DNA of 64,000 nt from Dictyophora rubrovolvata. Its lineage: Eukaryota > Basidiomycota > Agaricomycetes > Phallales > Phallaceae. The stretch is taken from positions 248,001 to 312,000 of the forward strand of contig CP114120.1 of assembly GCA_029959195.1 (NCBI GenBank), read 5' to 3'. Position numbers and translations under genes: made by a program. Below, one piece after another: positions 3,031 to 33,059 of this stretch (position 1 is its first letter; the number at the start of each line of letters is the position of its first letter). Under the pieces are notes generated by a model. That model was not told where the DNA came from. It saw only the letters and a list, made by a program, of their open reading frames with translations, and did no database searches.

Positions 3031-3314
3031 ACAACCTTCATCATTTTCTTTTTTTTGTCCTCAGCTTCGTTTATTGGTCCTCAGGCCCTTTTTGTATTTC
3101 ACCCTCCATCTTAAGCTTGTAGATCACCATATTAGTATTATCCCTCAGTCATATGTAGTAATAATACTAAGTTTTCAGAGACTCTTGGACATTTTCACTC
3201 GCGAAGACATACACTTTATTTCGACACAGTCTATCTCCGTAGTAGGTAGCAGTCACACAATACAATACAAGATCTTTGAATATGATTACGCCTTTACAAG
3301 AAATGATGCCTTGT

Positions 3315-4298
3315 TCAATTATCGTTGTGAGTCGGAGGAGCAATCACGAGTAGAGTATATCTAATGCTACCCGTTTTGGACATCATGTCTTTCGTTACTG
3401 CTATAACGCTCTGCACACATCAATACCCATACAATCTCTGCGGTGTAGTAGAGACCTGCTTACCTTGAGAAAATCCCCATCTCCACGGATGGCAATAGGA
3501 CCATGCGAAATGGGGCCCGAGCGAGCCCATCCATCTAATTCGAGTAGTTGGCCGTTGTAATCCGTAAACGCGAGATAGTGGGAGTCTGTATCGTCTGGGT
3601 CGTCGAGCTGTCATTGAAAGTAAAAGTAAAGATTGAATTGGGAGATTACGATCATTATGATGAGTTACCCACCCATGATTGGCCCAAGTCGGCAGCGGAA
3701 CGGTGTAGTTCTACGATATTAGTTTCTTCGAGTAGTTTTGCGGATTCATTGGGTGTACGCCCTTTGCATTGCTCGAAAAGGGTTTTGATAGGCCCCGGGT
3801 CTTGTTCGGTGATAGATAAGATAGTGATATGCCGAATTGCCAATTAGTTAGTGAATGATACGCCACTCAGGCTGCCAGCGTGGGTGTGGCGACTCACCTA
3901 AGGGAAGAGAAGGCGTATTTGCCAAACTGTGAAGAAGAGCCTTCGACAGAAAGTGTTTAGTGTTATCGTAAAATCAGTCTATCTCATACCATCGTCCCAC
4001 AGTGATTCGACAGCGTCTGTCTAATGAACACAACTTCCTCCGAGCTATCATCGAAAGGCCACCTCTTTTTTACTTCTTCTTCGGCAGAAAGTGACACGGG
4101 GTCATCGAACCGCTTGGGGGTAGGATAGAGCAGTATGGCAGCTTTGACTGGGCGTGGAATGAGTGCGAGTAATTCGTCATCAAAGCCTAGAATGTCATGA
4201 ATGCGGAATTGGGAAGTGTCCAAGCCGAGTTTTTGAGCCAGACTGTTAAACGAGATAGGGTTGGCCTCAAGAGGCATAATTCGAGTTTTGTCAGCCAT
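3315..4298 (-). CDS. Ubiquitin carboxyl-terminal hydrolase, UCH (peptidase C12) family, UCHL3/Yuh1-like
   Basis: A cysteine protease that removes small adducts from the C-terminus of ubiquitin. Five exons join in phase: 4298-3990, 3940-3898, 3800-3673, 3607-3464 and 3410-3315, giving 239 aa, the usual UCHL3 length. The start ATG gives MADKTRIMPLEANPISFN, and FDDELLALIPRPVKAAILLY follows. The oxyanion Gln and catalytic Cys are in RQTLSNHCGTM. The catalytic His is in DSHYLAF and the Asp in LLELDGW, so the active site is complete. The end (SIRYTLLVIAPP) matches the usual last strand. The gene is divergent from the small ORF at 4463. It looks like a housekeeping gene and contrasts with the fast-evolving genes around it. 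Confidence 0.93.
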
Positions 4299-4462
4299 GT
4301 TTTATCGATTACTATGTGATTTGTAGATGTGATTTAGTGATTGTGCTTGAAAAGAAAACGATCTTTGGCACTCGTCACAAGAATTGCCAAAGTCGGCGAG
4401 CGCCGCCTAAACTACAGGCGCGCTTCTTGGCGTCAAACCACAAGTTCAAATTCCCTCTCAAT

Positions 4463-5442: not shown

Positions 5443-7113
5443 TTGGGCAGAATTAATCCAACCGAAAATCTTTTCCTTCTCTTCTCCTGGCCAATGTCCC
5501 AAATGGAAATTAAACCCGTCTTTCAATGTTTTCTTTCTGACATCTTCAGGGAAGTTATTCTCTACACCTACGCGCACACAATGCAGTGCCGTGACACGGT
5601 GGTTGATGAAATTTCATTCAACTTACAAGTCCCATCACCTCCCATACCCGCGTCGCATGTCTGTCGTTCGTGGAGATATGCTCTTCTATCTGACCCCACG
5701 ATGTGGTCGTTACTTTCGATCCCGGAAATCAAACCTAGCGGAATTTACTGGAACTGCTTAATCGTTCGGGTTCTGCTCCATTGAACGTCTTTCTCAGAAT
5801 AAGGGATCCTCGCGATACATATTACGAGGAGATGGAGGACATGCTTTACGCTCTTTTCCAGCAAATCCATCGATTCAAGGTATTGCGCTTGAAAATTAAT
5901 CCTTTGTTCTTACCTCTTACTCCAGAACTCCCGAACATGGCCGTCTGCAAGCATTAATTCGAAATGTGTTGTCATACCTCCAACAGCCCGCGCCAATGCT
6001 ACGAACTTTCCCTTTTTGGTACGAGAATGTTATTTCCAATGGTCACAACGTCAACGAAGACGTAATTACAAATGCATTGTTCTCGGGAGATGTGTCCAAT
6101 CTCCAGCGATTACGCTATCGACTCCACCACTCCCGAGAATTAAAGCGAATTTCGCGATCTTTCGGAGCTATACGTTACTTCACTTCGTTAAACGAACCCC
6201 CATTCCTTCTCGAACTTATAGCATCGTCTCCCCGCCTTAAACTGGTCCACGTTTTTGCTTTTCAGAATTACTGGATGGAAATCGTGGAGACAAACCAGGC
6301 ATTGCCCGACCGCCAGGTTGATTTACCGTATCTGCAGTCACTTAGGCTCGTGGTGTTCGACCAGGTTAACCTTTTGTACTTGTTCTTGAAACATGTGACT
6401 TTCCCTCCGGACCTCAAGTGGTCTATCGTTTCAGACCATCGAAATGACTTTGAAGAGTCGCCGCCTTTACTCCAGCTACTCTCTCGAGCACACTTCATAT
6501 CTCTTTGTCTTGGTTTCGATGGAGTCATAAAGTCGATTTTTAGAGCAGAACACAGCTCCAACGAACTTTGTTTTCGTTGTTTGACCCGAACGCACCTAAG
6601 GACCCTTTGGCGTCCATTGATGCATGTTGTCCAATCTTCTTCACATGCATCTTGTCTTCCAATATTCGTCGGAGGAGTATTTGACAGTACTTGCAAAAAT
6701 TTTCTTGTCGGCATGCAATCTGTGAAACAGCTATGCGGAAGTGACTGGTCTTGATTGAGTTGCCCGATGACATTGACACCGATTCCCAAGAAAGCGATGG
6801 AATACGTGGCGAGGAATATGCCGGATACGAACACTGTGGATATGAGGCAAAGGCCCTGGACTGGAATTCTTACGCTCCATTGGCTCAGAAGATGATTATG
6901 CCACCGCGCAAACTACATTTAAAGCTGAATCATCCATTAACCGAACTACAGGCAATTCTGCTTCGTATCTGTGTTGAGACACGGCAGAATGAGGGACATC
7001 CACCGTCACAGATATCGGTTCATTGCCCAAAAATGAATAGAAGTGTGATATGTATACTGTGCCCGAAGAATGAACCTATTCAAGTCCCATTTGTTTCTGC
7101 TGACGACTACTAG
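5443..7113 (+). pseudogene. F-box gene FB3, near full-length pseudogene
   Basis: Three successive plus frames cover the whole local F-box protein. 5500-5740 carries the F-box (DIFREVILYTYAHT, PPIPASHVCRSWRYALLSD, PTMW). A shifted frame from about 5745 carries LNRSGSAPLNVFLRI and LFQQIHRFKVLRLKI. The frame 5966-6754 carries LSYLQQPAP, LFSGDVSNLQRLRYRLHHS, VDLPYLQSLRLVV and LQLLSRAHF. The C-terminal part continues in another frame to a stop near 7113. At least three frame changes are needed, with an early stop after KPSGI, so it is not a working gene. Divergence from the intact copies is moderate. Confidence 0.75.
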
Positions 7114-7627: not shown

Positions 7628-9525
7628 TCAAAGCTTGAAACCACCAGTCAAACCCATAATATTATTGGGATCGATGGATTTTTTCAAGGTGCGTAACTGG
7701 GGTAAGTTGGAGCCGTACAAAAGCTCCAAAGGCGTGTTCTCAAGAACATAATTAATATAACGGATGTCGTCCCAACGGCTTTGGTTTTGAGCAACAGCGA
7801 CAGTTTGAATCTGATTGGACATGTTCAGCAACGCGGTGTTGAAGTAGGTATCATCAGCGGGGTCGGAGTAGATCATCCAAGGGTTGCAAGGAGTGACAGG
7901 ACGAGAAGGCGGGTGAGGGAAGGCAGAGGGTAGGTTATGGTTGTTCACTCCGAAGAAAGGTTCGACCCCAAGAATAATGGTGTTTATGGATCTTCCTTCC
8001 GAAACTGCTTGTGTGAAGGCAGCGTTAACTTTGTCTTCAATGGTGAGAAGAACTGTTTCGGTGTATTTGAGGATGGGGACCATGTTAGACCAAGCACGGG
8101 AGAATGCATTGCTGAAAATTAAAGAAGATAGAGGTTATTTAACATCAGTTTGACATGATAAAAAAGTAGAATGTCAACATACGGATTAATAGGATTAACA
8201 ATAGATATGAAATCAATGAAAGAGCGAGTACCGACATCGCTGGAGATGTTGGGGATACTCAGGAAAGGCAAGAAGACATCTGGGACTTGGGGTTCGGAAT
8301 TGCTGAAAATAAGCTCCCAAATATTCTACAGTTGTACAAGGTGAAGACATTAAAAAGAGGGGAATGTAATGTATACGCTTACAGTTCCATTGGTGTTGAC
8401 GTAGGCTGCGGCAATCTGAGCCTTAGGATTCGTATTATTCAAACTAAAGTTCGCAATTGCCTGAATGATCTGGTCATGGACTTCGGGAACGGTAGGATCG
8501 TAGTCTATGATACCCGCCTGGTATTAGAGCAACCAATGAGCATATTCATATAGATCAGCAAGAACGTCTACTTACCCAAAAATCTCCAATAGGGACAGCA
8601 TTAAACGTCAAAGTGGTGACAATCCCAAAGTTATTGAGGCCGCCACGGATACCGAACATGAGCTCGGGGTTAGTCGCATCTGTGACATGAATAAACGTTC
8701 CATTCGGGAGGACAAGGTCGACAGCAATGATGTTGTCAACGCCCAAACCGACTTGGTCGGCGATCCAGCTGTAGCCTCCGCCGAGAGCCAAACCGACGCC
8801 TTGATGAAAACGTATGAGAATCTAGGGCAAAGTAGCTGAAAAGAATAGGAGAAGAAGAAAACTTACCGACACCAGGAACGCGACCACCTGCAACAGTCAC
8901 ATTGAAGGCAGAGAGGTCAGCATAAATCTGATCCCATGTTTTTCCGGGTTGTAGTGTAACGGTTTTAGTCGTGGGGTCATATGTGGTATTTCTGAAATTG
9001 GTCATGGAGATCTGGACACCAGTGGTGGAGCTGAAACCATGATTAATAGAATGGCCACCAGCTTTGACCTTTGAGAATGAAGGTTAGTGGTTATATTCTT
9101 GGCAAACAGGCGATGCGGCAAACGTACAGCGAAAGGAGAGCGGATATCAGGACGACCGACGATTTTCAACTACACCATTCTCGATAAAAAGATCAAATGA
9201 TGGATATAGAAGACGCTTACGATGGTGCTGATATCTTCTGGAGAAGTTGGCTCAACGCTGCAAGTTGCATTCTGGGTACTGGAGAACTCAAAGTGGGAAA
9301 TATCAGAAGCATATTGAGAAGAGCCTTCGGTGACGCGTGTTAATGTGCAATGTGACAAAAAAAAGAGAGACAGAACCAACCAGGGAAAAATATGGAGTCG
9401 GGAAGAGCTGCTTTTAATAAAGAACAAGCTTTCTGTGCATTGCGCTGCGGATTAAGAGCAGGAAGGACTGGAAACGAAGCGAGAGCTGTGAGAACGAACG
9501 AAGACAACAAGACGAAGGTTCTCAT
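7628..9525 (-). CDS. Secreted FAD-linked oxidase, berberine-bridge-enzyme type (VAO/PCMH fold)
   Basis: An oxidase expected to oxidise small alcohols or ring systems with O2. It opens with a signal peptide (MRTFVLLSSFVLTALASF), so secretion or the endomembrane system is likely. Exons in phase include 9525-9381, 9324-9221, 9169-9128, 9068-8867 and 8799-8576; further exons lie at about 8517-8382, 8325-8185 and to the stop at 7628. KAGGHSINHGF holds the His that takes the 8-alpha FAD bond. GGRVPGVGVG then GLALGGGYSW is the FAD cleft, and IAVDLVLPNG and GGLNNFGIVT follow. The C-terminus (NPWMIYSDPADD, YGSNLPQLRTLKKSIDPNNI) is the BBE-like segment with its substrate-domain end. The second FAD-linking Cys of true BBE is absent at the GGRVPG loop. 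It stands 1.4 kb from the aldo-keto reductase, divergent, so it probably belongs to the terpenoid cluster. Confidence 0.9.
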
Positions 9526-10908
9526 GGTGTAGTTTTACCCTGAACCTGCTACTGATGCGGAATGACTTGAAAGATATTAAGCTGGTCTCGTTGCTGTTCT
9601 TATACTCTTCCCAAGGTGCTTGGATTAGCGAGAGTGAAAACATATCTAAAACCTTGCCAAAAAAGTTTCCTAACAACTCGGCCAAAAAAGATCATAGTCG
9701 CGCCAACTTTTGGGTGGCACATGTGGATGGGAATCACCCTTAATGGATAATGCATAAGTAATCTCATCCACGGACTATTTGCTGATCTGTCATTAATAGA
9801 GTATGCCTCCATATGTAAATCAAGAAACAATGGCATCAGTTTAGGCTGCACGATTGGACAGACAGCTAACTCACGTGTATGATCTCTTAGCCAGCAAGAC
9901 GGGCCGCGCTCAGCTTCCGAACACCGTCGCGACCCCTGGTTATAGTTGTCTTAGCTTAGCCGGAAGCCATTAGCGCCAGCTACACAGTTCTCGCTGTTGT
10001 CAAACCCGCGGCGAAGAGTGAAACAAATTATGTGGAGTTATTCGGTATCATCAATCTCTGGTCAATCTGCAAATGGAGCAACCGAGGACCGACGGAGTTC
10101 TGGTGTGTACGGGGCTCGGATAGACCTCGAAGTTCGGACGCAAAGGGCAGACGAACGTGACCATGTAAGTACTTAATCGATGGGAAAACGACGCTCAAAA
10201 ATAAAGAGAAACATACCGCAGTTATAATATAGTTTGGATGTATTGGGTGAATAGAATCATCGAAGAGAAGGCCTGCCAGTCCATGGCTGATCCATTGCGC
10301 CGGAAGATTTGACTGTACGCGCTCCAAAATTAAACACTGACGTCGATTTTCGTTCTTTCAGCTGCCTCCACGCTCTGTTTCAGCTTGGAGCTCTCGGCTG
10401 GCTCTGCATAAATTATTCGTATACTTGGGACAGAGACAATGCTGCGTAATGCCGGTTGTTGGCAAACTGTGGTGCTACTTGCGCTGCGACCCGTCAAGCT
10501 TCAAGGGCCATCAAGACTGCATGGTTAACTTCTGGTAAAAAGCTGGTAAATGAGCTTCGGATCTACCCAATCGCTTTAAATTCGGGGTGAGTCTGGTAAG
10601 AAAGGAAGCAACAGACGTTTAAAGCGCTTAAAGAATCAGGCGATCACGTGCAGCAAACCCGGCGTAACCGTCGCCGGTAAGCGCTTAATCACTTATCTCA
10701 AGTTGCATTTTCTTTTTGCAATCGACTGAAATCTACTGAACTGCGCTGCGGGGAGGTACAAAAAAAATGACATAACCCTTGTTTAATCGCCTCGCGATTC
10801 GGAACGTTCAAAATTTGTCTTGTTTTCGGGTCGAGAACCGACCGGCCTGGGCAGGGATATACATAAGTGATTCAACTCGTAGGCTGTGCAACCACCAACT
10901 AATCCGCC
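9526..10908. promoter_or_regulatory. Divergent intergenic region between FAD oxidase and aldo-keto reductase
   Basis: About 1.4 kb without a supported gene separates two divergent starts. On the minus side a TATAAG box (9597-9603) lies about 75 bp upstream of the oxidase ATG. On the plus side GGGATATACATAAG near 10855 lies about 50 bp upstream of the reductase ATG. The minus ORF at 10028-10327 has no recognisable features. Confidence 0.4.
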
Positions 10909-12311
10909 ATGAGTTTCTATCCTCCTACTCCCCCTGCTCCTACTGCCCTTGGTCGCTATCGTCCCTTTTCCAAAAAATCCGGCATTCATGTGTCTCCGCT
11001 CGTCTTGGGCGGTATGAGTATCGGAGACGTCTGGCAGCACATTGGAATGGGCCAAATGGACAAGACGTCGAGCTTTAAGCTTTTAGATGCCTTTTACGAT
11101 GCCGGTGGCAATTTCATCGACACCGCCAACAACTAGTAAGTATAGCACGGCTCTTTAAGATAGACATAATCATTGATTAATTTACGATGATAGTCAAAGC
11201 GGTACCTCCGAACAGTTCATCGGTGAATGGATGGAAAACCACAAGAACCGTGAGCAAATGGTCATTGCTACCAAAGTACGTGTGCAGATATTGCATTTAG
11301 TGATTCCGCCAACACAGTTAACGCGGGTTGTAGTATTCCTTCAATTACAAAGTCGGCGATCCTTCTGTCCAACAGAAGATTAACTTTCACGGTAACAATG
11401 CCAAGTCATTACTCAACTCCTTGAGTCAATCCTTGAAGAATCTGCGCACTGATTACGTTGATATCCTTTATCTACACTGCTGGGACTGGGAGACTTCCGT
11501 TGAAGAAGCCATGCACAACCTTCACAAAGTCGTCCAACAAGGGAAGGTTCTATACTTGGTATGTCCTTCAATTTCACGTCCGCCCCAACAATTTTGACGT
11601 TTTATCGACTTAAGGGTATTTGCAACAGTCCCGCTTGGATCGTCTCCCAATGCAACCAGTATGCTATCGATCACGGTCTCACCCCCTTTGCAGTCTATCA
11701 AGGTTCTTGGAACATTATGGATCGTGCCTTTGAGCGCGACATCATCCCAATGGCTCGTGAACATGGTATGGCAATCTGTGCTTGGAACGTCCTCGCGTCT
11801 GGAAAGCTTCGTTCCGACGAGGAGGAGGCACGTCGCGAAAAGTCTGGCGAACAGGGCCGTGATCTCAAGATCGATAACAACGGCTGGAAGCGTACCGAGA
11901 GGGAGAAGAAGTATTCCAGGGCTCTTCAGAAGGTTGCCACGCAATTAGGACTGGGTCAAGAGGCCGTTCCGGCCATCGCTATTGCCTATGTTATGCACAA
12001 GGCCCCTTACGTCTTCCCTATCATTGGTGGAAGGAAGACCGAACATCTTCACGCAAATATCCAGGCGTTGAAGATAAGACTCTCGGAAGAGCAAATCCAG
12101 TCCTTGGACTCGATTGAGTCTTTCGACGTTGGCTTTCCTCACACGGTCTGCGTACGTCTTCAAAAAACGAGAGCTTATTTTTTGTTTTTGAATTTTTTCT
12201 CTCTCTTTCTCACAGGGCAATGGAACCAAAACTGTTGATATTCTTAACATGGTCGCCGAGCACGATCGTGCTCCTTACGCTAGCCCAATTCTCCCCCCCA
12301 AGAAAGCTTGA
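10909..12311 (+). CDS. Aldo-keto reductase, aryl-alcohol dehydrogenase type (AKR9-like)
   Basis: An NADPH-dependent carbonyl reductase. Five exons join in phase: 10909-11135, 11194-11275, 11334-11558, 11615-12151 and 12216-12311, giving 388 aa, normal for this family. The catalytic tetrad is visible: Asp and Tyr in FIDTANNYQ, Lys in MVIATKY, His in YLHCWDWETS. WNIMDRAFERDIIPMAREHG and the cofactor-binding IIGGRKTEHL are hallmark stretches shared with aryl-alcohol and norsolorinic-acid reductases of fungal secondary metabolism. It lies between the FAD oxidase and the first P450. A role in reducing an aldehyde or ketone made by the oxidases is inferred from this position; the substrate is not known. 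Confidence 0.92.
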
Positions 12312-13574
12312 ATGTTACGTTTGCTCCGCTGATAACGCGTGTAATCAACCAAAAATTATGAAGAATAGAAATTTTTACAATGATATTGTCAAATGTGTGA
12401 TTTTTGATCAGTTGCAAATAACGCATTGGGGTAATTGATAATCCACTTGAAGAATTCTTGAAAGTAAATATCGTCATGATCGTTAGGCGTTAACCGCTGA
12501 AATGGATCGCCATCCTTAGGTCATAGCGCTTCCCTTAAACCACGATAAGCTTACTTGTGTAGGCGCAGAATCATATTGCTGGGCACTTTTGATCTTGACC
12601 TTGACCTTGACTGTCATGATTTACAAATTATGACAGCCGGCTGAGAATTCGGCAAATAACGCATAACGGACTCTATAGAACCAGTTCGAGACCGGTCACC
12701 GACGGTCTTCTTCAAGATTTGAAATACACAGCCAGACAAATTAGATTGGCCATTTCAGGCTACCCTGAGCTCCTCCAAAAAAGAAACTGTATACGGATGA
12801 CTGACTCGGACAATTAGAAGTTGAAAAAAACAGGTTCATTGATTCAGAGTTTACCGAATTCAGGATCAAAATATCGATTCGCGAGAATAAGATTGTTAAC
12901 CCCATTTCTTGTCTGGTTAATGCAGCACAGCAGAATCAGCTTGAGTTTAATGATTCATGTAGACCGGGACTCGGACGACACTAGTTTGTGTAGAAACGGT
13001 GCAAGAACCTTTCAATCGCGAGCTTCTAGATTTTCTATTTTGCAACTTCGTTCCAAGTCACAACTTCGTCCTATCTAGGGTGGGTAATAAACTTTAAATT
13101 TAAACTGAAACATGCGGGCAGCTGTGCAAACCGGATATCCCTGAGCTCAATTTGACTGTCGCGTTTTACATATATTATCCGTTGGAGTACGTATCGCGAA
13201 CGCCTATGATTGACAGGCACATGAAATCTTCTATAATAATCCGGACCATCAAGCTCGGAAAGGTTAAAAGGGTCTTGCAATCGAAGAGACGCTTCTTGCC
13301 GAAGTAAAGGTATTTCTCATCGACTGGTTCGGAGCAAGTGCCTATTATATATGCTGTTGGGGCACGAATACTCGTGATATTTTTCAAAACGCTTACGGCC
13401 GCAAGGGTTTGAAAGCTTATCACGGTACACACTGTCCCCGGTAATAGCCAATTCATATCGTAGATTCGATTAGGAACCTAGGCTCAAAAAATGGCATCAC
13501 TTGTAATAAACATGAGATACCCAAACTTTTATTGCATAATTCTTTCTAAATAATTATTATATACGCAATATAAT
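12312..13574. other. Intergenic with a short CTTGAC microsatellite
   Basis: Holds no supported gene. A small run of CTTGAC-type repeats lies at about 12588-12615. ORFs at 12821-13078 and 13071-13456 have no family resemblance and stay unassigned. Confidence 0.45.
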
Positions 13575-15624
13575 TCAATTACTACTAATGTCTTCATGGC
13601 TAACACCGTATTGAATTACACTTTCAGGGACTCTGGGGGTGAAATTGACTGTGAAGCGAGGCGCAAAACTGAACGAATAGTAATTAAATCGTGTATCCAA
13701 TATTTTGTGACAAATAGCGCACCTTATCATTGCGTTCGTATATTCAAGTTCAGTCTCAGGAGTAATTAACTCTCCGTTCAGCGTCTTTGCATTAGAAATG
13801 TTGTATGCCGCCAGAATTGAAGCAGCCATTATCCAAATGGTGTCCCGAGCGATGACTATGATGAATCATTAAACAGAGAATTGGAATAAAAATTGGGAAA
13901 AAGACTAACATCTGCCTGGGCAAGCACGTCTTCCGAATCCGAAGGCCATATCTACTTCGGAAAGATCGCAAACTGTTGTCTTTTCAGCGCTTATGAATCT
14001 TTCCGGCATGAATCTATCTGTCTTGGGCCCGAAGATTGTTTCATCACGTAAAATGGCCCAAGCGTTGGGAACAATAATCGAACCCTTTGGTATGAGGTAG
14101 CCTTCGTAAACGTCATCCGCGGTAGAAACGTGATATACGGCGAAAGGCGTCACAGCTTGCCATCTGAAGACCTCGTTGACCATGGCGGCAAGGTAAGGTA
14201 GCTTCTCAAAGTCTGAGAAGTCGGGAAGACGTTGGCCCTGGAGTACCGCATCCAAATCTTTTTGAGCTTTTTTCTGGACTTCGGGATAGATGGCCATGGC
14301 TAGAACGAAATTATACAAAGCGCAAATGCTCTGAAAAACGTTATCAGCATCTTATTTAGCCTAGGTAATATATGCATACCGTATCAGAGCCGGCTGGTGA
14401 AAAAGATACGTTTAGAAAGGGGAAAAAAACAATAATGAAGGAAATGTTACCGAGGTAAGCATTAGCGAGGACATTGCGAGTCGCCTCGACTTCGGTTGCA
14501 TCTAACTTTTCGCCATCTTGCAACATCGAAAGGAAGCGCGATGCCACTGAAGGAAGAGCAGTACCGTCATCCTTATCAACAAAGCGAGTTTTAAAGACAG
14601 AATGGACAGAATCAGAAAGAAGGAATGCTCACGACTTTAACTTGCACTTCGGCATAAGGTCCAGTAACAACAGACTTGGCCAAAGGCCTGCCGCGATTAG
14701 CGACCTCCCAAAAGGTGGCACCAGGAGTCCAAGCGGGAAGGTATTTCAGGAATGGAAAAATATCGACTAAATGAAATTCTAAATAAACTACCTTTTTTTT
14801 GCAAAGTTAGCTCACCCAGATATCTCCCTTTTGCAACGTCTGCAAAAATCGCGTTAACGGCTTCAGTAACTTGAATGAAAGGATGTTCAAAGCTCGTGGG
14901 TGTAATTCCATAGGTAATCGAGAGGACTGAATCAACAGCCGCTCTGAAAGCAAAAACTGTAAGAAGGGGGTTATATGTAAAAGCTGATAACGTCGTACAA
15001 TCTGAGTTCGCCCTCATAGTCCTTGCTGTTTAACAGGCGACGCAAAAGCCTTCGCGCCGCCTGAACTTCATGAATGCGATTAGCAGCGGTTGATTCGCGT
15101 GTGTCAAATTCACGGCGGAAGATATGACGATGTAACTTCCAGCGCTCATCTTGGTTCATAAAGACGATTAGCCAACCAGTCTTAATTCTGGACTTTGAGT
15201 CAGTGCCATGAATGACGTGCAGCCAATTTAATAAAATACATACAAATCATAAAGTAGTGTTGAACGAGGTCTATCCGAGTAAATACTGCTGCGTTTAATC
15301 AGTAGCTCTTGAACGACCTTCGCGTTATTGAGAATGACAAAATGAGTGCCGGGGAACTTCAAGCTCAAAATATCACTGTCTGAAAGGTGTAATAAAACAT
15401 TATTTTTATAGTAGATTGGGAACAGACTTACTGTATTTCTTCGACCACTGCAGGTAGACCTTCCACGACTCGTGCGATGGCAACTGGAAGAGGTTACCAA
15501 AAAAAGGTATACCGGGGGGGCCAGGGGGGTATACAGGTTTCGAACGAAATACTTTCAAGTATGCGATACAAAGAGCCACGAGCACTACTATCCAACGAGA
15601 AGTTTGAATAAGTAAGCCCCCCAT
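13575..15624 (-). CDS. Cytochrome P450 (P450-1), membrane-anchored monooxygenase
   Basis: A heme monooxygenase of the fungal type often annotated as O-methylsterigmatocystin-oxidoreductase-like. The chosen start at 15624 gives a hydrophobic anchor (MGGLLIQTSRWIVVLVAL) followed by the hinge YPPGPPGIPFFGN; an upstream Met at 15675 adds 17 residues. Many short introns split it. The I-helix AGSDT lies near 14390, the K-helix ExxR is NEVFRW, the PERF motif is FMPERF, and the heme loop is FGFGRRACPGR with its Cys. The last intron candidate (54 nt just upstream of FAPRFTVNF) is a multiple of three without a stop, so both spliced and retained forms stay open. It is divergent from the terpene synthase across about 1 kb and is the paralogue of P450-2. 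Confidence 0.93.
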
Positions 15625-16694
15625 AGTATCTACTGGAAAGAAAAGACTGTCAAAAGACGAAATAGCGTTGTACATCGTGAAACACGCTGGACGTGGAATG
15701 AGAAGAAGGCGGAAAAGAAAACCTGTAGATTTGCGCTTTTCATCTTAACCAAAGTATCTACGTTTTTGGTTTAGAATCCGTACGCTCGGCATCATTAACC
15801 CATGGAGTGAATCCGGGTGATTCTCGCAAGATTAGCGCTCCAAGGAGCCAAAAGTGATGTGACATGTGACACTCGTCTGGCGCTTCCGGACGTCTCTAAA
15901 GTCGAATCATTTTGCCAAGGTCTAGGACATTTGTCTTCAAGCTCGCATCGGAGTGTGCCTTCAAACTTCGATATCTTATCTTGTCTTTACTTTTACCCTC
16001 GGGAATGCCAGCCTGCGAAGGTACTTCGAAAGGTCCGACTCAATAAATTGTAATACTAGAAATATTGGCACATCATGATGTATGTTGGACCACCCTCTTT
16101 TGATTCTGAAAGAACCCATGACATGATAGAGTTATTATTATGTCAAGGCGTGTGAGATTTTTCGATGCAAAATAAGAACTGATACTGAAAAAACAACCCG
16201 ATCGTTGGTTCTTCTGAAACTACAGTTTTGAACAAACATTTACCTTATCACAGAAATAATTTTATAAATTTCCCTTAAAAATGCTTCTGGCCGAGGGCCG
16301 GCGAGTGAAATAAACAGCAAAACAACTTACCGCTTCGCAGTTTCACCAGCCGTTTCAGTGATATCGAAACGGACAGCGAAAAAAAAAACTCTGACATCCC
16401 CTATCAATAATCAAATGAGGTACTTATCTGCAAACTGTACCGGCGATACATGGCCGGAAAGCACCCTCATAGGGTGGCCTTTAGGGTGAGTGGACTCTGG
16501 TTTTAACCTATCGTAATTCCGGAATTCGCCATAGTACGTTGTTTTGAACAAAAGTATGATGCACCTGCAGCATCACAGATACATAAAGGACTTTGTTTAT
16601 GATACTGGCGCAACAAATTTACAAACTCCTATTCAATCACTAGTGATTTTAGGCAAAACACCCCAACGCTTTGACGCCTTTACCCTCATCCATC
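15625..16694. promoter_or_regulatory. Divergent promoter region of P450-1 and terpene synthase
   Basis: About 1 kb lies between the two divergent starts with no supported gene. A shared bidirectional regulatory region is inferred from the layout. I could not identify a specific factor site. Confidence 0.4.
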
Positions 16695-17949
16695 ATGCCC
16701 GTTCCCTCAGGACCACAGACCTTCCGTCTTCCCCTTCTGCATGAAACATTCTCTGTTTTCCCCGATAATGGCTTCAATCCCAATTATAACATATGTCGGC
16801 CTCAGTCTAGAGCATGGATCACCAAATATACTGAGCAAGTTTGTGGTCCCAAAATGCGAGCCTTCATGGACAACTGTAACTTCGAGCTGTCTAATGCCTA
16901 TGTTTATCCTTACGCGCAACCTCCTGGCCTCAGGGCAACTATGGACCTCGTATATTGTTTCAGTCCTTTTCTTATCTTTTCCTTTAACCGACTCAGTTTT
17001 TAGGCGAACATTCTATGGCTTTATGATGAATACACTGATATGCAGACTGGAGCGGATGCAGCAAAAGCCGCCGTCATCGTCCGAAAAACACTTTCAGATC
17101 CAGAATATGACGACGGCTCATGGATTTGTCATATGATGCAGGAGTAAGTTGATCAGTATCGTTTAAGATGAATCAAATAATGATTTTTTTCTCAGTTTTT
17201 ATGTCAACCATATTCAAAAGTGTGGTCCCAATGTGGCTAGTCGTTTTATCAAGAACTTTTGCAAATACACCGAAGTCGTTGGAACTGAGGCTGAACTTCG
17301 TGAAAAAAACCAGGTTCTGGATATTCCCGGTTATATCGCCCTTCGTCGTGAAATTAGCGCTGTCCGAACATGTTTCGATCTTGTCGAATATTGCCTTGAT
17401 CTCGACCTTCCTGAAGAAGTTCATAAGGACCCTGTCTTCATCAACGGATACAACGCTGCCATGGATTTGGTATTCTGGGCAAACGTGAGCCGTTCGAATA
17501 ATCAAAATTTTTCAACTGTAGACTCGTTATTTTAGGATCTCTTCTCGTATAATATGGAGCAAGCGAAAGGTCATGCCGCTGCCAATATCGTAACAGTCAT
17601 AATGACGTCAAAAAAAATGGACTTACAAACGGCTATCGACTTCATTGCTGGTTATTGTGAGGCTCTCACTTTCCAACTACTCGACGCCATATACATGCTT
17701 TCTCGCCGCGAGGATCCTACTTTCTCTCGAGACGCGGTGAGATGCCTGGAAGCATTTGGAGACTGGGTTCGCGGGAATGACGCGTAAGTTCGAAAGGTTC
17801 ATGGCATTCGAACTTATTATTGAAAAGTTTTACTTAGGTGGAGTTTTGCAACGACACGGTATTTTGGTCCAGAAAACGACATCGTTAAAGAGACTCGCAT
17901 TGTCAAACTCAAGGCACCTTTTGAAGGTTCTGTTGCCTTGAAAGAATAA
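16695..17949 (+). CDS. Class I terpene synthase (probable sesquiterpene synthase)
   Basis: Cyclises a prenyl diphosphate, most likely farnesyl diphosphate, to a hydrocarbon. Five exons join in phase: 16695-16949, 17004-17143, 17196-17484, 17536-17783 and 17838-17949, giving 347 aa, normal for mushroom sesquiterpene synthases. The aspartate-rich metal motif is WLYDEYTD (DExxD). The second metal motif, NDLFSYNMEQ (NDxxSxxxE), spans an exon junction. The diphosphate sensor Arg is probably in LRREISAVRT, and the end carries the conserved WSFATTRYFG and VKETRIVKL, with the RY pair. The ATG at 16695 (MPVPSGPQTFRLP) was chosen because translation upstream has no family resemblance. With P450s on both sides it is the core gene of the cluster. 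Which product it makes cannot be read from the sequence. Confidence 0.95.
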
Positions 17950-18755
17950 TATCATTTTGGATTATTACCCTCTTCAAAGATCGAACATGTTTCGACATAA
18001 GGAATCGTGTACATGTAATTACTTAGGAGGCCATTAGTAAACTGTAGTTAGATAAAGCTTCATTATGAATGTATTTTGTTGTTTGAATAACCACACGCTC
18101 AGCGAAGAATAGTGTCATTAATCAAAAATTGGATTATGTGCCGAACCACCGCCTGTTTGGTACCATTCCAGTACTGATTTCATTGCGCAGCAGTAGTTGT
18201 CCTAAACGAGGTACATAATGAGATAATAAAATAGTACGGGTACCACAAATTTATGGTAATTCGGTACATTATCCATTAGCACAATTACTGGCGCTATTCC
18301 TTGCTCGGCGTGTAGGATGCGATGTGAAATCCCCGCGGCTTTGCAGTATTACCATATCGCAACCGAATTTTTTTCAATAATTAAAGCACTGATTGGCGAG
18401 AGAATGCATTTGAAACGGCTAATCAATCTAATGAACCAACATGGGGTTTACTACATGGAAGCGCCACCAGAAGCGCGGCATCGACGTTATCTCGACTCTT
18501 CGATTTTGTGTCAAAGTAATTATTAATCAAATAGTACGAGTCTCGCCTATTGAAAACCTTGCACAGTCAATCAAGCTTTGAGCTTCAAGTGCTGCAATGG
18601 CGGTTGGACAGATCTAGATCTTCCATCAATCAGAACTTCAGAAGCCGCGGGTACTAACAACGAGTCAAAAGTCAAGCTCACGTGGAGGCTCCACAGATGA
18701 TGTGACAGATCTGTATAGTACAACTTGAAGTGAATATACATATACACGTCAAAAA
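17950..18755. other. Intergenic, nothing recognised
   Basis: Three-prime side of the terpene synthase. An ORF at 18317-18526 shows no recognisable motif. AT-rich, with no repeat seen. Confidence 0.45.
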
Positions 18756-19098
18756 AAATTTACCTTGCGACTTCCGTCTCTACGCGGGCGCCATCACAGG
18801 GACTAGACTTGACAAGATTCAGAGATAGCACGTACACGGCCAACCAGCTTCTTCAGGCTCGATTTGGCTATCGGCGCCTTTGGCATTCGATTTCAAAAAA
18901 TGTCGTGAATGATCTTGTTGTTTTTTCAAACGTAAGTGTTTAGCTATATTTGCTGAAGATAACAATTATGGAATTCCAAGGAGATACATAGCCTCAGATC
19001 AACAATAATCAGTACCTGGATCGACCGATTCGCGCCTGAGCTCAAACGTTTGCTTGTTGCTCCATTCCAATATTTCATGCGCGACATTGCTCTCTAGA
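18756..19098 (+). other. Possible unrecognised coding exons or gene remnant
   Basis: A coding-like stretch (containing QLLQARFGYRRLWHS and NVVNDLVVF) ends at a good donor (GTAAGT) near 18931. After a possible acceptor at about 19014 it continues in a frame reading TWIDRFAPELKRLL and FQYFMRDIAL to a stop. No clear start codon precedes it and I do not recognise the family. It could be the tail of a decayed gene between the terpene synthase and P450-2, or chance. Confidence 0.2.
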
Positions 19099-19407
19099 CG
19101 AAGATCCGTTGACCGGAAACCTTGGGAAGTTATATTTTCAAACTTTTTTCTCCGGCGCAGATAGAAGTGCCCACTAGTAACTCCATTCGGGGTTGCTTCT
19201 GGCTTTCAGCGTGTTTGTAGGTCCGCAACCATTTATCGGATATCCCCGGAAGACTTGATAATTTCATTCAATAATTGCACCTCCTGACTCACAATCTCAA
19301 ACTGGTACCCCTGAGAATTCCTAGGAATTTGTAAGAGAGATAGACATATTGCAACCTTGCTCGGTTTCAACCCGTGTCCTCCATAACCTTTCCTTTAGCC
19401 ATTCACT

Positions 19408-21514
19408 ATGCTACCTGCTTTCATTAACTCTAACAGCGCGGTCATCCCATTGGTAGTGGTAGTGATCATCACGCTTCCGTGGATCTATCGCAGACGTCAA
19501 CGATATCCCCGCGGTCCTCCTGGACTTCCTGTCTTGGGTAATATATTCGATCTTCCACAACGAGAATCATGGAAAGTGTACCTACAATGGAGTAAACAAT
19601 ATAGTAAGTCGCAACTATAATTTACAGTTCACTGACTTACCTAGGAACTTTCGTTTCTCAAGACTCTGATATTCTCAGTCTTAAAGTCCCAGGTGTTCGC
19701 ATGTTTATTCTGAATACGCCCAAAGTTATTGAGGATTTACTTGTAAGGCGAGCGGGTATCTACTCCGATAGGTAAGGAGACAAACCTGACCTCAGCTTCA
19801 GAGAAAAGTACTCATATTTTGAACAGGCCCAAGTCTACGATGCTGAATGATTTGTGGGTTCTTTTTGACGAATTTGCAAGTGGTCAGCGGAATGCTAAGA
19901 TATACTCAATAGAATCGGAACTGAGTGGATCATTCCTTTCATGGATTATAATGAGGAGTGGAAAGGTAAGTTTTGATGTTGATCTTTCTTCTCAACCCAC
20001 ATCCTTCAGAACACCGTCGTATATTCCGTCGAGAGTTTGACTCGATTGATGCCAGCACCACGAATAAAAGCCACGAAGTTAACGCCGCTCGTAGACTGTT
20101 GCGTCGTCTTTTGACGTCGACAGATCACCTTGGTGATCTACGGATGTCAGTTAAAAACGTTCGTTTGGGGGGACTATTGACTAACTATGATATCCCGTTA
20201 AGAGCTGCTGCAGATGCCATTCTTTCAATCACCTATGGCATCACACCAACTGATTTCTCTCATCCCCTGATCAAAACTCCCGAGGGCATTAATGCGATCT
20301 TTGCGGATGTTGCTAAGGGTGGCTACTTAGGTTTCTCACATCCACCACCACTCATGTTGAAAAAAACTGAAATAGATTATTTTAGTGGACGTTTTTCCCT
20401 TCCTGAAACATATTCCCAGCTGGTTCCCTGGTGTCCAATTCCACAAGGTGGCAGCGAAAGGAAAACCGCTTGCTAGAGCCCTCGTCATGGCGCCTTATGA
20501 GGAGGTTAAACGTCAAGTTGCAAGTAACAAATCGGTCTTCTTAGAATATACATTAATTTTTAAATTTTTTTGATAGAAAGATGGCGTTGCTGTCCCCTCG
20601 GTTGCGTCCAAGCTTTTATATGGTGTTCAAGAAAATGCCACCAGCACCGAAAAAGAAATAGATACCGTTCGTAACGTGCTTGGAAATGCTTATCTCGGTG
20701 CGTCAACTTGCGATATCTATCTAGAAAATGATAGGAAACCTGTGCTCACCAGGTGGCGCTGATACAACCGTTTGCGCGCTGTTTAACTTTACGCTGGCTA
20801 TGGCACTGTATCCCGAAGTTCAGAAAAAAGCTCAAGGCTTTCTTGATAAGGTTCTAGAAGGAAACCGTCTCCCAGAGTTTTCGGATCTTTCGGAAATTCC
20901 TTATCTCACTGCTGTTGTTTATGAAACCTTACGCTGGCATCCCGTAACTCCCTTTGCGATTTATCACCTTTGCACTAAAGAAGACGTCTACGAGGGGTAC
21001 TCTATCCCGAAGGGCTCGATCATGATACCGAACCTCTGGGCTATTCTTCAAGACAAAACGATATTTGGCGCTGACACCAATCATTTCAGACCTGAAAGAT
21101 TTATGCAAGAAGACGGGAGCGCTAAGGATATTCCAGAGATGGTCTTGGCATTCGGCTTTGGGAGACGAAAATGCCCTGGGCATTGTGAGTGATCAGGTCA
21201 TCCATTATACAAATTGATACATATGTGTGACTTCCGTTGGTTCCAATAGTGATGGCCTTTGATACCCTTTGGATTATGGCAGCACACCTCCTCGCTGCTT
21301 ATGAAATTGTGAACCCTATCGACGAGGAAGGCATGCCCATTACGAATGAGACTTATCTAGAATACACCAACGCTATGGTTAGGTCCGTGCATCCAATAAA
21401 TTCTGGCTCTTTACAGAAGCTGAACCATTTTGATATAGCTTCCCTCCTTCCTACAAGGTTGCATTGAAAAGGAGAATCCCGGAAGGTATGATCTCAGAGG
21501 CAATAATTAACTAG
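19408..21514 (+). CDS. Cytochrome P450 (P450-2), membrane-anchored monooxygenase
   Basis: Paralogue of P450-1 with the same layout. The N-terminal anchor (VIPLVVVVIITLPWIY) is followed by YPRGPPGLPVLGN and QRESWKVYLQWSKQY, near identical to HESWKVYLQWSKKY in P450-1. Exon 1 ends at 19613, and about nine more short introns follow. Visible motifs are EHRRIFRREFDSID, the I-helix GGADTTVCAL, ExxR in ETLRW, FRPERF, and the heme loop FGFGRRKCPGH. The last exon, spliced from 21378 to about 21473, ends FPPSYKVALKRRIPEG and stops at 21514. Reading through that intron instead gives an early stop. It follows the terpene synthase on the same strand. Substrate is unknown; oxidation of the terpene scaffold is inferred from position. 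Confidence 0.93.
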
Positions 21515-22276: not shown

Positions 22277-23986
22277 CTACTCTCGGAGCTTACCTTCTTG
22301 AAGAGCAGGAATACCAGTGAAACCTTCTTCTTCAATTGAACCCTCTTCTTCTTCAATTGAACTATCCTCTTCTTCGATTGGAGTCGGAATAATGGATACA
22401 TCAATGGCATCATCCTCTTCCAGAAGACGTTCGGTTTCTTCATCTATTAATGAGCAGCAGACATGTACTTCCAAGGGACAGCCAGCCTTCCGCCGCAAGC
22501 CAGAGCACGCACGGATTATTCTTGCTCCTCTTTTCCCCAGTGGATCTCGTAGCTCCAGAATTAATACACGTAACAAGGGACAAAGAGGAATGGGTATGGA
22601 ATTATGGGTGGGGATAACATCTGAGCAGGGAAGGTCCAACCTCGGGTCCCACTCCATATCTGGAATGTATTCCAAGATTTCTTTTGACAGCGGCATCAAC
22701 GTAAATAAGAATCTTAGGCATACTCCCCCTGTACTATATGGGTATTCGCTTTCTTTAATAACTAGATTCTTCAGACTCGACGTTGATTTGAAAATAGTAG
22801 GCCACATTTCAGAGAATTCCGATAAATCCTCGAGAACCATGTAAGTGATCCTGTTTAATGCGATAGCATGCTTCAATGGACCCCAAAGATCTACTAGAGT
22901 TTCTGCTTCCTCGTGAACGTAGGCAAATTCATTGGTGCTGAATCGATTGTGATAATTTTCGACTAGATGTTCCTCGGAAAACAATTGTATAATATTCTCG
23001 GACGCTATGATGCGGAGGGATGTCAAGTGCGCCCGAGACAGAAATTGAAGTAAGGACGGCGACTCAAAGTCAGGTGAATCCTTGGAATTGATATACCACT
23101 CGAGATTGGTGGGAAGGACCACGGCTTGTAAAAAAGAGTCCACCAGGTCAACCATATAGCCCACATCGAGAACAAGACTCTCCAAGTACGGTAAAGTAAC
23201 CTCACGGTTACGCAGAGATGTCCGGGTTAAACTCGGGTTCGCGGTAACACAAACATGAAGCAATTTGAGACTGGGCGACAATTCCAAAATATCCAGAAAA
23301 CGGTCGAAGTCTATATTGAACCATATACTGAGATAGATCTCTGATAGATTGTAAAGGACAGGAAAGCCAAATTCTTGGAAGGTTAGGGAAATTCGGTGGT
23401 GTATTCGCTTGAGGTTGGGCGCATCTCTCAAAAAGAGGGTACCTAGATTTGAAAGTTCGGGACTAGAGTAATAGTTGAGGTCCAGCCATAAAGAAAGAAT
23501 TTCCAACCTCGGCGCGGGTTGCTGAAGGTACAAAAAAATGTGTTTGGCTAGTGTCTCTTGCATAGTGGGAGGAGATGTCACGAAACGAGAGGCCCAACAG
23601 TCAATACGCACCCGCAATACTCTGAATCGATGGATTTGCTGGAAGAGTGAGAACAACATTTTGTGCGTCTCATTGTAACTTGTGGAGATCTCGAGAGCTT
23701 CATCGAATTCGAGAAACACGTTTAATAAAGCGGTACCTGACCGACGAAGTAACTCCATTATCCAGTTATGGTTCATCTTGTGGATTAAAAGGCACGCCCA
23801 CATTGTAGGATCTGAGAGGAGGGAATATCTCCAGGTACGGCAAACTTGCGATGCTGATATGGGAGGTGATGATACCTGTAAATCAAGTTCAGGTTCTTCG
23901 AATGGCAGCCGCAATGTATACACATATGTGTATAGCATAATGTTTCTGAGTATGTCGTAAGGGAAAAGTTCAAACGGAGAGGTCAT
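22277..23986 (-). CDS. F-box protein FB4 (leucine-rich type), intact
   Basis: Probable substrate receptor of an SCF ubiquitin ligase. Single exon. The frame is open from an ATG at 24049, but I prefer the internal ATG at 23986 (MTSPFELFPYDILRNIMLY), because a TATA box at 24071-24080 leaves no room for a transcript start before 24049. The F-box is residues 1-60: FPYDILRNIMLYTYVYTL, then PPISASQVCRTWRYSLLSD and PTMW. A leucine-rich middle follows (LFQQIHRFRVLRVRI, VTLPYLESLVLDV). The C-terminal tail is a repetitive acidic Glu/Ser run (residues about 535-565, EEEDSSIEEEEGSIEEEG), which the other copies lack. First gene of a minus-strand array. Confidence 0.88.
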   Translation of the reverse strand: MTSPFELFPYDILRNIMLYTYVYTLRLPFEEPELDLQVSSPPISASQVCRTWRYSLLSDPTMWACLLIHKMNHNWIMELLRRSGTALLNVFLEFDEALEISTSYNETHKMLFSLFQQIHRFRVLRVRIDCWASRFVTSPPTMQETLAKHIFLYLQQPAPRLEILSLWLDLNYYSSPELSNLGTLFLRDAPNLKRIHHRISLTFQEFGFPVLYNLSEIYLSIWFNIDFDRFLDILELSPSLKLLHVCVTANPSLTRTSLRNREVTLPYLESLVLDVGYMVDLVDSFLQAVVLPTNLEWYINSKDSPDFESPSLLQFLSRAHLTSLRIIASENIIQLFSEEHLVENYHNRFSTNEFAYVHEEAETLVDLWGPLKHAIALNRITYMVLEDLSEFSEMWPTIFKSTSSLKNLVIKESEYPYSTGGVCLRFLFTLMPLSKEILEYIPDMEWDPRLDLPCSDVIPTHNSIPIPLCPLLRVLILELRDPLGKRGARIIRACSGLRRKAGCPLEVHVCCSLIDEETERLLEEDDAIDVSIIPTPIEEEDSSIEEEEGSIEEEGFTGIPALQEGKLRE

Positions 23987-24070
23987 AATGAACGCGGTTT
24001 GGAGTTGGATTGAAAAGCAGGTCGAATGGGAATTTTGACAACTTGACACGTTACGATTTCAAAGGGACAC

Positions 24071-24080
24071 CTATTATATA
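24071..24080 (-). promoter_or_regulatory. TATA box of F-box gene FB4
   Basis: TATATAATAG on the minus strand, about 85-95 bp upstream of the preferred ATG at 23986 and only about 25 bp before the upstream ATG at 24049. It decides the start choice. Confidence 0.5.
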
Positions 24081-24374
24081 GTGGTGGGCGTCCTAGCTAT
24101 TGTGGGCAGAAGCAAATTAACGTCCTATTGGATCCTGGGGCCTGAGGACACGCGTCCCAGCATGAACTTACGGCGATTTACCGGCAGTGATTCAACGGGT
24201 AAAGCTGGGTAGACGTTGTAATAATACGATAAAATTCAAGATATAATTTGAAAACTACAGAGTATGTTAGTACATCTACATTAGATCTGCGTTGCTGCAC
24301 GTGTGATGCATGTGATGTATGATGTACAGACTTTCCACCTTGGGTTTGTCGATGCATCATTATTTCAGAGACTG

Positions 24375-26039
24375 TTAGAGGGAGTTGTCGATCAAAACGT
24401 GAATGGTATCGTTTTCTCCCGTTTGTATCATGGACTCGACACCTTCCTCTATGTCGGGGCATCGAACCAATATTCGCAGAGGGTATGCCTCTTTCCGTCG
24501 TCCGTCAGAACATACACGGAGCATGGACGCATGGACTTTGTTTAGCGAATCGCTCAGCTCCACAGTTAATTCGTGTAGAAGAGGACAAAGAAGCGCAGCT
24601 GATGTGGGGGCTGATGGTATAGAATCAGTGAATGGAGCATTATCCTCCAGCGAAAGAATGGACAGCGAGCTCAAATAAGGTTCTTGAGACGGATTCGGTT
24701 CGGCCTTCTCTGTTATGCCAGTGTTGATATTAGATAATAAGGGTATCAGTGCTGACAAACACGATACGCATGGTTCCTCAGCATCATAATAGGGGCCTAC
24801 AGTCTTTTGTCTAACTGTCAAGGATTTGAGATTTTGCATCGTTCGGAGAATTTTGAGAAATACTGTAGATTCCACCGTGGACTCGAACACAAGGTCAAAG
24901 TAAGTGATGCTAGACAATGTTTCGATATATGGACTCGCTGTATCCAAGAGCATGGCGAAGTGATCTGCGCCGTCAAACATAAACACTAGCTTATTCCGAG
25001 AAAATTGATTGAGATATTGCGGTCCGTGTTCTTCTTCTTTAAGTGTTAAATCCACGCCCCTGTATTGATTAAACAGAATACGGAAAGTGGCAAAATGTGC
25101 CCGTGAAACGAGTTCAGGCAAGTGCGGCGAATCATTATAACGCTGATGTTGAACAGTGATATGCCAATTAGTATGCCGTGAAAAGGTTACGCATTCCAAG
25201 ATCAAATCTACGAGTTCGGATGTGCAATCCACTTCGAGTATTATCCTTTCCAGAAAGGGCAAGTTTACCTTGCGGAATGAACTGGGGAATTGATAGGCTA
25301 TGGCTGAACCTCCATCTCTATAAACGCGAAGCAATTTAAGATGTGGGGATAGTCCTATAAAGTCTAGGAGATGACTGAGCTCTATGGTGTGAGCAGGCAC
25401 AGTGAGGTAAAGTTCCGAGAGATTGTGGAATAGAGAACAACTGGATTCTCGGAAGTCGAAGGATGGTCGATAATGTATCTGCTTGAGATTGGGAGCTTCT
25501 CCCGAGAAGAGTGTGGTTAGGAATGTTTGGTCGAGACGAGAAGTGTTCTTGTACCAAAAACGCAACGTCTCTAAATTCGGTGCGGGCTGTCGGAGGTATG
25601 GCAAGACCGTTTGGATTAATATTTCTAAATGATTGACAGATGAGGTTCTAGGACGATAGTACCCCCAAATGTTGACTTGTAGATGTAGGATTTTGAAACG
25701 ATGAATTTGTCGAAAAAGCGCTTTCAGCACGCCCGCACGATCATAGTGATCTTGCCTGTAAGGATGCTTTATAATGAGAAATACGTTTAATGGAGCAGAT
25801 CCTGATCGACGAAGTATCTCGATTATTCCACTCGGTTTGATTTGTGGAATCAACAGGCACGTCCACATGAACGGATCTGATACCAGATCATATCTCCATG
25901 AACGGCAGACATGAGACGCAGCTATGGGAGGTGATACCAAATGCAAGTCTAGCTCGGGCTCGTCAATCTCCTCTGGCTTCGGTATGTACATGTTGGAGAG
26001 AAGTATTATCTCCCTAAGAATATCGTAAGGGACATGCAT
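24375..26039 (-). CDS. F-box protein FB5 (leucine-rich type), intact
   Basis: Single-exon, 554-aa member of the family and probable SCF adaptor. The F-box is at the very start (VPYDILREIILLSNMYIP, then PPIAASHVCRSWRYDLVSD). A leucine-rich body follows: LFRQIHRFKILHLQV, YLRQPAPNLETLRFWY, VNLPFLERIILEV, LVSRAHFATFRILF. The C-terminal block is LCPLLHELTVELSDSLNKVH and CPDIEEGVESMIQ. EIDEPELDLHLVSPP and the end block are closest to FB13 at 50.1 kb, which lies on the opposite strand of the other array, so FB5 and FB13 are probably a recent pair. No TATA or ACGCGT box is evident upstream. Confidence 0.9.
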   Translation of the reverse strand: MHVPYDILREIILLSNMYIPKPEEIDEPELDLHLVSPPIAASHVCRSWRYDLVSDPFMWTCLLIPQIKPSGIIEILRRSGSAPLNVFLIIKHPYRQDHYDRAGVLKALFRQIHRFKILHLQVNIWGYYRPRTSSVNHLEILIQTVLPYLRQPAPNLETLRFWYKNTSRLDQTFLTTLFSGEAPNLKQIHYRPSFDFRESSCSLFHNLSELYLTVPAHTIELSHLLDFIGLSPHLKLLRVYRDGGSAIAYQFPSSFRKVNLPFLERIILEVDCTSELVDLILECVTFSRHTNWHITVQHQRYNDSPHLPELVSRAHFATFRILFNQYRGVDLTLKEEEHGPQYLNQFSRNKLVFMFDGADHFAMLLDTASPYIETLSSITYFDLVFESTVESTVFLKILRTMQNLKSLTVRQKTVGPYYDAEEPCVSCLSALIPLLSNINTGITEKAEPNPSQEPYLSSLSILSLEDNAPFTDSIPSAPTSAALLCPLLHELTVELSDSLNKVHASMLRVCSDGRRKEAYPLRILVRCPDIEEGVESMIQTGENDTIHVLIDNSL

Positions 26040-26839
26040 GTTGTGAGATGTCCACTCTTCAGAGCATGCTCTAATAGAACGACACCGTTAAAGCCTAGAA
26101 AAACATTGATGGTAGAAACTTTTGCCCACTTTTAGTGGTCTCGACTACGTACTTCAGTCGTAGTAATTCCCCGAGCAAAACAATGCTGAAATAATGGGAA
26201 TTAAAGTTAGCCTGGTTGAAAAAAATCAGTATAAATCAACTGACCGCTCGCGATCAGTGAAAAAAGACGCATGTTGCTTACGTACGTGTGTCAGCCGGTG
26301 TGTGGCATTAAATTTGCTCTACGCTTCAAGCCTCACTGGCACCAATCGACGTGCCTCCAATTACAACCACCGCACAAAACCTTCGACGTACCATCTGAGT
26401 AATGCATAATGCAGCCGCCTGAAGACTGTTTCAAGGTTCTGTTTTTGTGCAGTTACGACAGGTCTACCGTTTTTTTTCATTTTGCAAATACGCCAGGAAG
26501 TAGCTGATTTTCGCCAAACCTTCTAGTCTTAAGCTCCACCAAAAGAAAAAAACAACAATAACAAGTTAAACGAGCATCAATTCTAACTCATACAAAATAT
26601 TTCATTAATACATCATATATCATACCTTATGTACATAAATTGAGTTGCATAAACGAGTGATCATACAATTGTGGCGGGTAAGCCAGAGACTAGCAGCTAT
26701 AGACTTTGATGTAATCGAGCAATAATAAACGTCGTTGCGGTACCAGCATTCACAGGATGAAGACCTGACCTAGTGTAATAGACTTTTGTGAAATCCAATC
26801 AAAATGAACAGAGCTCATTGCTTACTATGTATGGATTGC
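26040..26839. other. Intergenic between FB5 and FB6
   Basis: No supported gene. AT-rich, with poly-T and poly-A patches. Confidence 0.5.
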
Positions 26840-30620: not shown

Positions 30621-30729
30621 TTAAACGGTGCCTGCTTGGCGGATACCCCCGCCTTTCAGTGAGAACGAAAAAACGGAGCATACGAGGCGAAAAAAGGTTG
30701 AACTGAACTTGAAGTCAGTCGAGAGTTGG

Positions 30730-30930: not shown

Positions 30931-30996
30931 ATTTCTTGGTGGAGGGTGAAATCAAACTGCTTGTACGCAATGATGTAACGGGGGACGAATACGTCA

Positions 30997-33043: not shown

Positions 33044-33059
33044 GACGAGTAACGTCGTG

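What the first reader, a model, noticed from the sequence alone, without database searches (positions are those of the whole stretch)
7628..21514. Probable terpenoid biosynthetic cluster: FAD oxidase, aldo-keto reductase, P450, terpene synthase, P450
Five genes with complete-looking catalytic motifs lie together: a class I terpene synthase flanked by two P450s, with an AKR and a BBE-type oxidase alongside. Seen directly: the motifs and order. Established: fungal terpenoid pathways are clustered and use such tailoring enzymes. Inference: they act on one scaffold. The combination of a BBE-type oxidase with a terpene synthase is not a common set.
Basis: partly seen in the sequence, partly recalled or inferred. 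Interest (0 to 1): 0.75.

Follow-up and report, generated by a model that had tools for sequence, protein, structure and literature searches.

The report
Mushroom sesquiterpene gene cluster, five genes
Five intact genes in an unnamed, probably mushroom-forming fungus sit side by side and look like an ordinary small production line for an oxidised sesquiterpene; a similar set has been proposed in another mushroom.

Summary
In detail: 7628-21514 holds five complete spliced genes, BBE-type oxidase (-), aldo-keto reductase (+), P450 (-), class I terpene synthase (+), P450 (+). Nine ORFs from the gaps gave no Pfam family over cut-off. Of 11 synthase loci in this genome, only this one has P450, AKR and FAD_binding_4 places all within 20 kb. 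The synthase groups with AcCop4 (40% identity, support 99/97), so a cadinane- or cubebane-like scaffold is likely. The P450s are 58.8% identical and share seven intron sites. The set has one published parallel, a proposed Coprinopsis strossmayeri cluster of FAD oxidoreductase, sesquiterpene cyclase, AKR and P450 (PMC7135263, passages). That the BBE and AKR belong is inference: the BBE looks secretory, the AKR has four similar copies elsewhere, and no shared promoter word was found. Co-expression and synteny in relatives could not be tested. Verdict: real, ordinary, a new member of a known kind.

The parts
7628..9525 (-). BBE-type FAD oxidase, 492 aa, 8 exons; hydrophobic N-terminus, 10 N-glycosylation sequons; flavin-linking His103 present, Val161 where PpBBE-like 1 has Cys
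   Evidence: spliced model; Pfam FAD_binding_4 and BBE; best PDB match PpBBE-like 1; N-terminus and sequons
9526..10908 (.). 1383-base region between the divergent BBE and AKR genes; three ORFs from it gave no Pfam family over cut-off
10909..12311 (+). aldo-keto reductase, 388 aa, 5 exons, D71/Y76/K103/H151
   Evidence: spliced model; Pfam Aldo_ket_red; residues
13575..15624 (-). cytochrome P450 A, 520 aa, 10 exons, hydrophobic N-terminal anchor, I-helix AGSDTS, Cys loop FGFGRRACPG
15625..16694 (.). 1070-base region between the divergent P450A and terpene synthase genes; two ORFs from it gave no Pfam family
16695..17949 (+). class I sesquiterpene synthase, 347 aa, 5 exons, Cop4 type; DEYTD, NDLFSYNME, WSFATTRY
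19408..21514 (+). cytochrome P450 B, 514 aa, 11 exons, hydrophobic N-terminal anchor, I-helix GGADTT, Cys loop FGFGRRKCPG; 58.8% identical to P450A

Best explanation
A compact sesquiterpenoid biosynthetic cluster. The synthase ionises farnesyl diphosphate, isomerises it to nerolidyl diphosphate and closes it 1,10 to a cadinane- or cubebane-type hydrocarbon or alcohol (inferred from its place beside AcCop4). The two membrane-anchored P450s, a local duplicate pair, hydroxylate or further oxidise that scaffold at different positions (inferred). The AKR reduces a resulting carbonyl (inferred). The BBE-type flavin oxidase oxidises an alcohol, or desaturates or cyclises a late intermediate, probably in the secretory pathway (inferred). 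Shown here: five intact genes, their classes, their closeness, the synthase's grouping and the P450 likeness. Not shown: any product, and that all five work in one pathway.
For: Intact models and Pfam classes. The synthase groups with AcCop4 at 99/97 and 40.0% identity; the best of the 12 other sequences compared is 30.7%. AcCop4 is cited as cubebol-producing (a title in the reference list of PMC12864622), and clade II is defined as 1,10 closure of (3R)-NPP (PMC9501842, passages). P450B is the closest other gene to P450A by score: 62% over 145 residues, against 38% and 53% for the next two genes (the reverse search was not run). The pair is 58.8% identical overall, and 7 of the 9 P450A introns recur in P450B in the same phase within one residue. 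Of 11 synthase loci, 3 have a P450 place within 20 kb and only this one also has AKR and FAD_binding_4 places. The BBE has no close copy in the genome: the next place by score is 31% identical. A proposed precedent exists for the gene set.
Against: No 9-mer or longer is shared by the three promoter regions, and the 2 shared 8-mers are fewer than the shuffle mean of 3.33. The AKR belongs to a small family with four other members, 49-62% identical over most matched exons (43% over one short stretch). None of these lies within 20 kb of a synthase, though the one on C6 lies about 30 kb from synthase L011. So the AKR may do general work. The BBE has a hydrophobic N-terminus and 10 sequons, which fits a secreted protein better than a cytosolic step; no signal-peptide predictor was run. 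No transporter or regulator was recognised, but only selected ORFs were scanned. The chance estimate is post hoc and assumes independence.
Confidence: 0.6

Rival explanations
1. Core cluster of synthase and two P450s only. AKR and BBE are neighbours by accident, or form a separate divergent pair, for example in aromatic alcohol or sugar metabolism outside the cell.
For: The BBE looks secreted; its best PDB match is PpBBE-like 1, with chitooligosaccharide and glucooligosaccharide oxidases further down the list. The AKR has four similar copies elsewhere. Another FAD_binding_4/AKR pair occurs on C3 without a P450 place within 20 kb. No shared promoter word.
Against: Three ORFs between AKR and P450A gave no Pfam family, and the spacing is as tight as within the core. 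FAD_binding_4 and AKR places are rare, 17 and 22 merged places in 28.2 Mb, though these are approximate and may be lower bounds. A proposed precedent has both classes.
Confidence: 0.3
2. A silent or decaying cluster: intact reading frames but no current product, or a P450B that splices poorly.
For: Several P450B introns have unusual donor sites (GTTTCT, GTGGGT, GTCAGT, GTCCGT); fungal clusters are often silent (recalled).
Against: No stop or frameshift in any of the five models; catalytic motifs kept.
Confidence: 0.1

Closest known systems
Coprinopsis strossmayeri proposed bovistol cluster (PMC7135263, passages)
   Same: FAD oxidoreductase, sesquiterpene cyclase, aldo-keto reductase and P450 side by side in a basidiomycete
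   Different: its cyclase is put in the 1,11 class and one P450 is listed; here the synthase is Cop4-type and there are two P450s. The subtype of its FAD enzyme was not seen, and the cluster is proposed, not proven.
AcCop4 of Antrodia cinnamomea (PDB 8gr5)
   Same: closest solved structure by sequence, 40% identity; shares the SYNMEQAKGH stretch and a W-x5-RYFG end
   Different: DEVSD against DEYTD; loop GHSGNN against GHAAAN, a loop whose changes alter the product in Cop4 (PMC9501842 passage)
Armillaria gallica Pro1 cluster (PMC7778616, passages)
   Same: sesquiterpene synthase with neighbouring P450s
   Different: protoilludene synthase and four P450s; 'aldo' does not occur at a word start in the text and the one 'FAD' is about halogenases

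Membership tests
class I fungal sesquiterpene synthase | aspartate-rich motif, NSE triad, Arg sensor, WxxxxxRY, Terpene_syn_C_2 family | tested here: met
   DEYTD at 93, NDLFSYNME at 228, R182/R183, WSFATTRY, Pfam 6e-41
Cop4-type (clade II) synthase | branches with a Cop4-type enzyme and not with a protoilludene synthase | tested here: met
   with AcCop4 at 99/97 in a 14-row tree; only three outside references, aligned parts only
Cop4-type (clade II) synthase | 1,10 closure of nerolidyl diphosphate | not testable with these tools
   needs an enzyme assay
cytochrome P450 | p450 domain, ExxR, PERF and Cys-ligand loop | tested here: met
   PERF is read from the sequences, since the pattern used for it was mis-set
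aldo-keto reductase | Aldo_ket_red domain and Asp-Tyr-Lys-His tetrad | tested here: met
   the role of the tetrad is recalled
BBE-like flavoprotein | FAD_binding_4 plus BBE domain, flavin-linking His | tested here: met
   His103 aligned with the His of PpBBE-like 1; its role is recalled
bicovalent BBE (His and Cys links) | second flavin-linking Cys | tested here: not met
   Val161 stands where PpBBE-like 1 has Cys; the role of that Cys is recalled
biosynthetic gene cluster | backbone and tailoring genes close together, beyond chance | tested here: met
   post hoc estimate
biosynthetic gene cluster | shared control element | tested here: not met
   exact-word test on three promoter regions; degenerate motifs not covered
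biosynthetic gene cluster | co-expression; conserved grouping in relatives | not testable with these tools
   no RNA data; the genome search says the genome has no relatives here

The most novel reading that the evidence does not exclude
A Cop4-type cadinane pathway finished by a secretory, singly linked BBE-type flavin oxidase: P450s and AKR make a reduced precursor inside the cell, and the exported oxidase makes the final oxidised compound in a vesicle or outside.
Probability: 0.1. Interest if true: 0.5.

Novelty: new member of a known kind. Interest (0 to 1): 0.25.

Why it matters
It is a small, complete and readily testable set for what is probably a cadinane-type sesquiterpenoid. The gene models given here are a starting point for expression. 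The secretory-looking BBE is the only unusual point, since it raises where the last oxidation takes place. Otherwise it adds one more example to a well-known class.

Tried and rejected
Further genes inside the interval: eight ORFs from the gaps gave no Pfam match over its cut-off (where 8 of 10 queries were gap ORFs; one had a sub-threshold DUF6404 match), and one more at 18260-18523 gave none. Shorter ORFs were not scanned. A shared promoter element: none. A link with the GMC oxidoreductase (55309-57177) and the class III aminotransferase (58551-60177): rejected, since they lie more than 33 kb away beyond F-box-like genes. A protoilludene-type synthase: rejected for this gene, because it branches with AcCop4 while L013 and L014 branch with the protoilludene synthase 8h72. 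A TP_methylase search meant as a marker gave one gene only, whose start resembles a siroheme-type enzyme (recalled resemblance), which shows nothing either way. A paper search for an Omphalotus assembly of that size listed no Omphalotus genome paper (12 of 27 listed). If it were Omphalotus, the cluster may already be covered by Wawrzyn et al. 2012, which is not held. Literature on such gene sets: searches gave one relevant paper; the other listed papers were not opened. NCBIfam gave only matches far below cut-off. tRNA and Rfam scans of the window were empty.

Full report
Observation. The window is C4:248001-312000 of a 28.24 Mb, 11-contig genome. I read the gene regions in three frames per strand and built spliced models by hand. 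All five genes are complete: BBE-type oxidase 9525-7628 (-), AKR 10909-12311 (+), P450A 15624-13575 (-), synthase 16695-17949 (+), P450B 19408-21514 (+). All 34 introns have GT-AG ends and are 44-71 bases long. A splice-aware aligner that I wrote returned both P450 models exactly when each was aligned to the other's locus. With the synthase protein itself as query it also returned the synthase model; BBE and AKR were not re-derived. Pfam confirms all five classes.

The synthase. It has DEYTD, NDLFSYNME and WSFATTRY. Its best solved relative by sequence is AcCop4 at 1.4e-69, ahead of a protoilludene synthase at 2e-40. In a tree of the 11 synthases of this genome and three PDB sequences it joins AcCop4 at 99/97; identity to AcCop4 is 40.0%, and to the 12 others 21-31%. 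AcCop4 is called cubebol-producing in a reference title (PMC12864622). Clade II enzymes are described as closing (3R)-nerolidyl diphosphate 1,10, with delta-cadinene, cubebol and other products (PMC9501842, passages). I therefore expect a cadinane or cubebane scaffold. The loop after the NSE motif reads AKGHAAAN here and AKGHSGNN in AcCop4. Changes in this loop shift the product of Cop4, so the exact product is open.

The P450s. They are 58.8% identical. Seven of the nine P450A introns recur in P450B in the same phase, within one residue. In a genome search with P450A, P450B is the closest other gene; the reverse search was not run. They look like a local duplicate pair around the synthase. 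P450A and the synthase start on either side of a 1070-base region, and BBE and AKR on either side of a 1383-base region.

AKR and BBE. The AKR keeps its Asp-Tyr-Lys-His residues. Four other AKR genes are 49-62% identical over most matched exons, with one short stretch at 43%; one of them, on C6, lies about 30 kb from synthase L011. The BBE-type gene has no close copy: the next place by score is 31% identical, and shorter places reach 33-35%. It keeps the flavin-linking His103 but has Val161 where PpBBE-like 1 has Cys; the roles of these residues are recalled. Its N-terminus is hydrophobic and it holds 10 N-glycosylation sequons, against 0, 1, 1 and 4 in the synthase, AKR, P450A and P450B. That points to the secretory pathway and is a caution for a shared cytosolic pathway. 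No signal-peptide predictor was run.

Is it a cluster? Of 11 synthase loci, 3 have a P450 place within 20 kb and only this one also has AKR and FAD_binding_4 places. The places are exon matches merged by position (94 P450, 17 FAD_binding_4, 22 AKR); they are approximate and may miss or split genes. In one search I added seven P450 places taken to the 104. The chance estimate (about 7e-5 to 1e-3 for 11 synthases, multiplied by hand from the values) assumes independence and was made after the fact. In the match lists there are two FAD_binding_4/AKR pairs within 20 kb, and only this one has P450 places within 20 kb (the P450 list given to that script covered C3 and C4 only, where the two pairs lie). 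Against a joint pathway, no word of 9 or more bases is shared by the three promoter regions, low-complexity words left out.

Known or new. PMC7135263 (passages) proposes a cluster of FAD oxidoreductase, sesquiterpene cyclase, aldo-keto reductase and P450 for bovistols in Coprinopsis strossmayeri, so the combination has a precedent. On the other side, the review PMC9501842 holds neither 'FAD' nor 'aldo' at a word start, and five literature searches gave no second parallel in their listings. Most subscription papers are missing from the library.

Verdict. A real and complete sesquiterpenoid cluster, most likely cadinane-type, with a firm core of three genes and two likely further members. It is a new member of a known kind, of modest interest.

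Noticed in passing
window 22280-33064, 43870-45564, 50110-51813, with pieces at 2704-3060, 5900-6751, 52468-52848: The cluster is flanked by single-exon, about 570-aa F-box-like ORFs; the six long ones are 35-49% identical to each other, and related pieces lie on both sides. The Pfam F-box-like match is below cut-off in the three scanned.
   Followed up: partly
window 55309-57177 (-) and 58551-60177 (+): GMC oxidoreductase and class III aminotransferase ORFs near the right end; nothing seen links them to the cluster.
   Followed up: no
G000:C5:806414-814335 (L015, L016, L017): Three terpene synthases within 8 kb with no P450 place within 20 kb.
   Followed up: no
L013, L014: Two synthases with a DEHTD motif branch with a protoilludene synthase; L013 has a P450 place 3 kb away. 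The L014 model carries an in-frame stop, perhaps an artefact of the automatic model.
   Followed up: no
window 19408-21514: P450B has several unusual intron donor sites (GTTTCT, GTGGGT, GTCAGT, GTCCGT).
   Followed up: partly
window 3987-4301 (-): ORF with part of a ubiquitin C-terminal hydrolase (Peptidase_C12).
   Followed up: no
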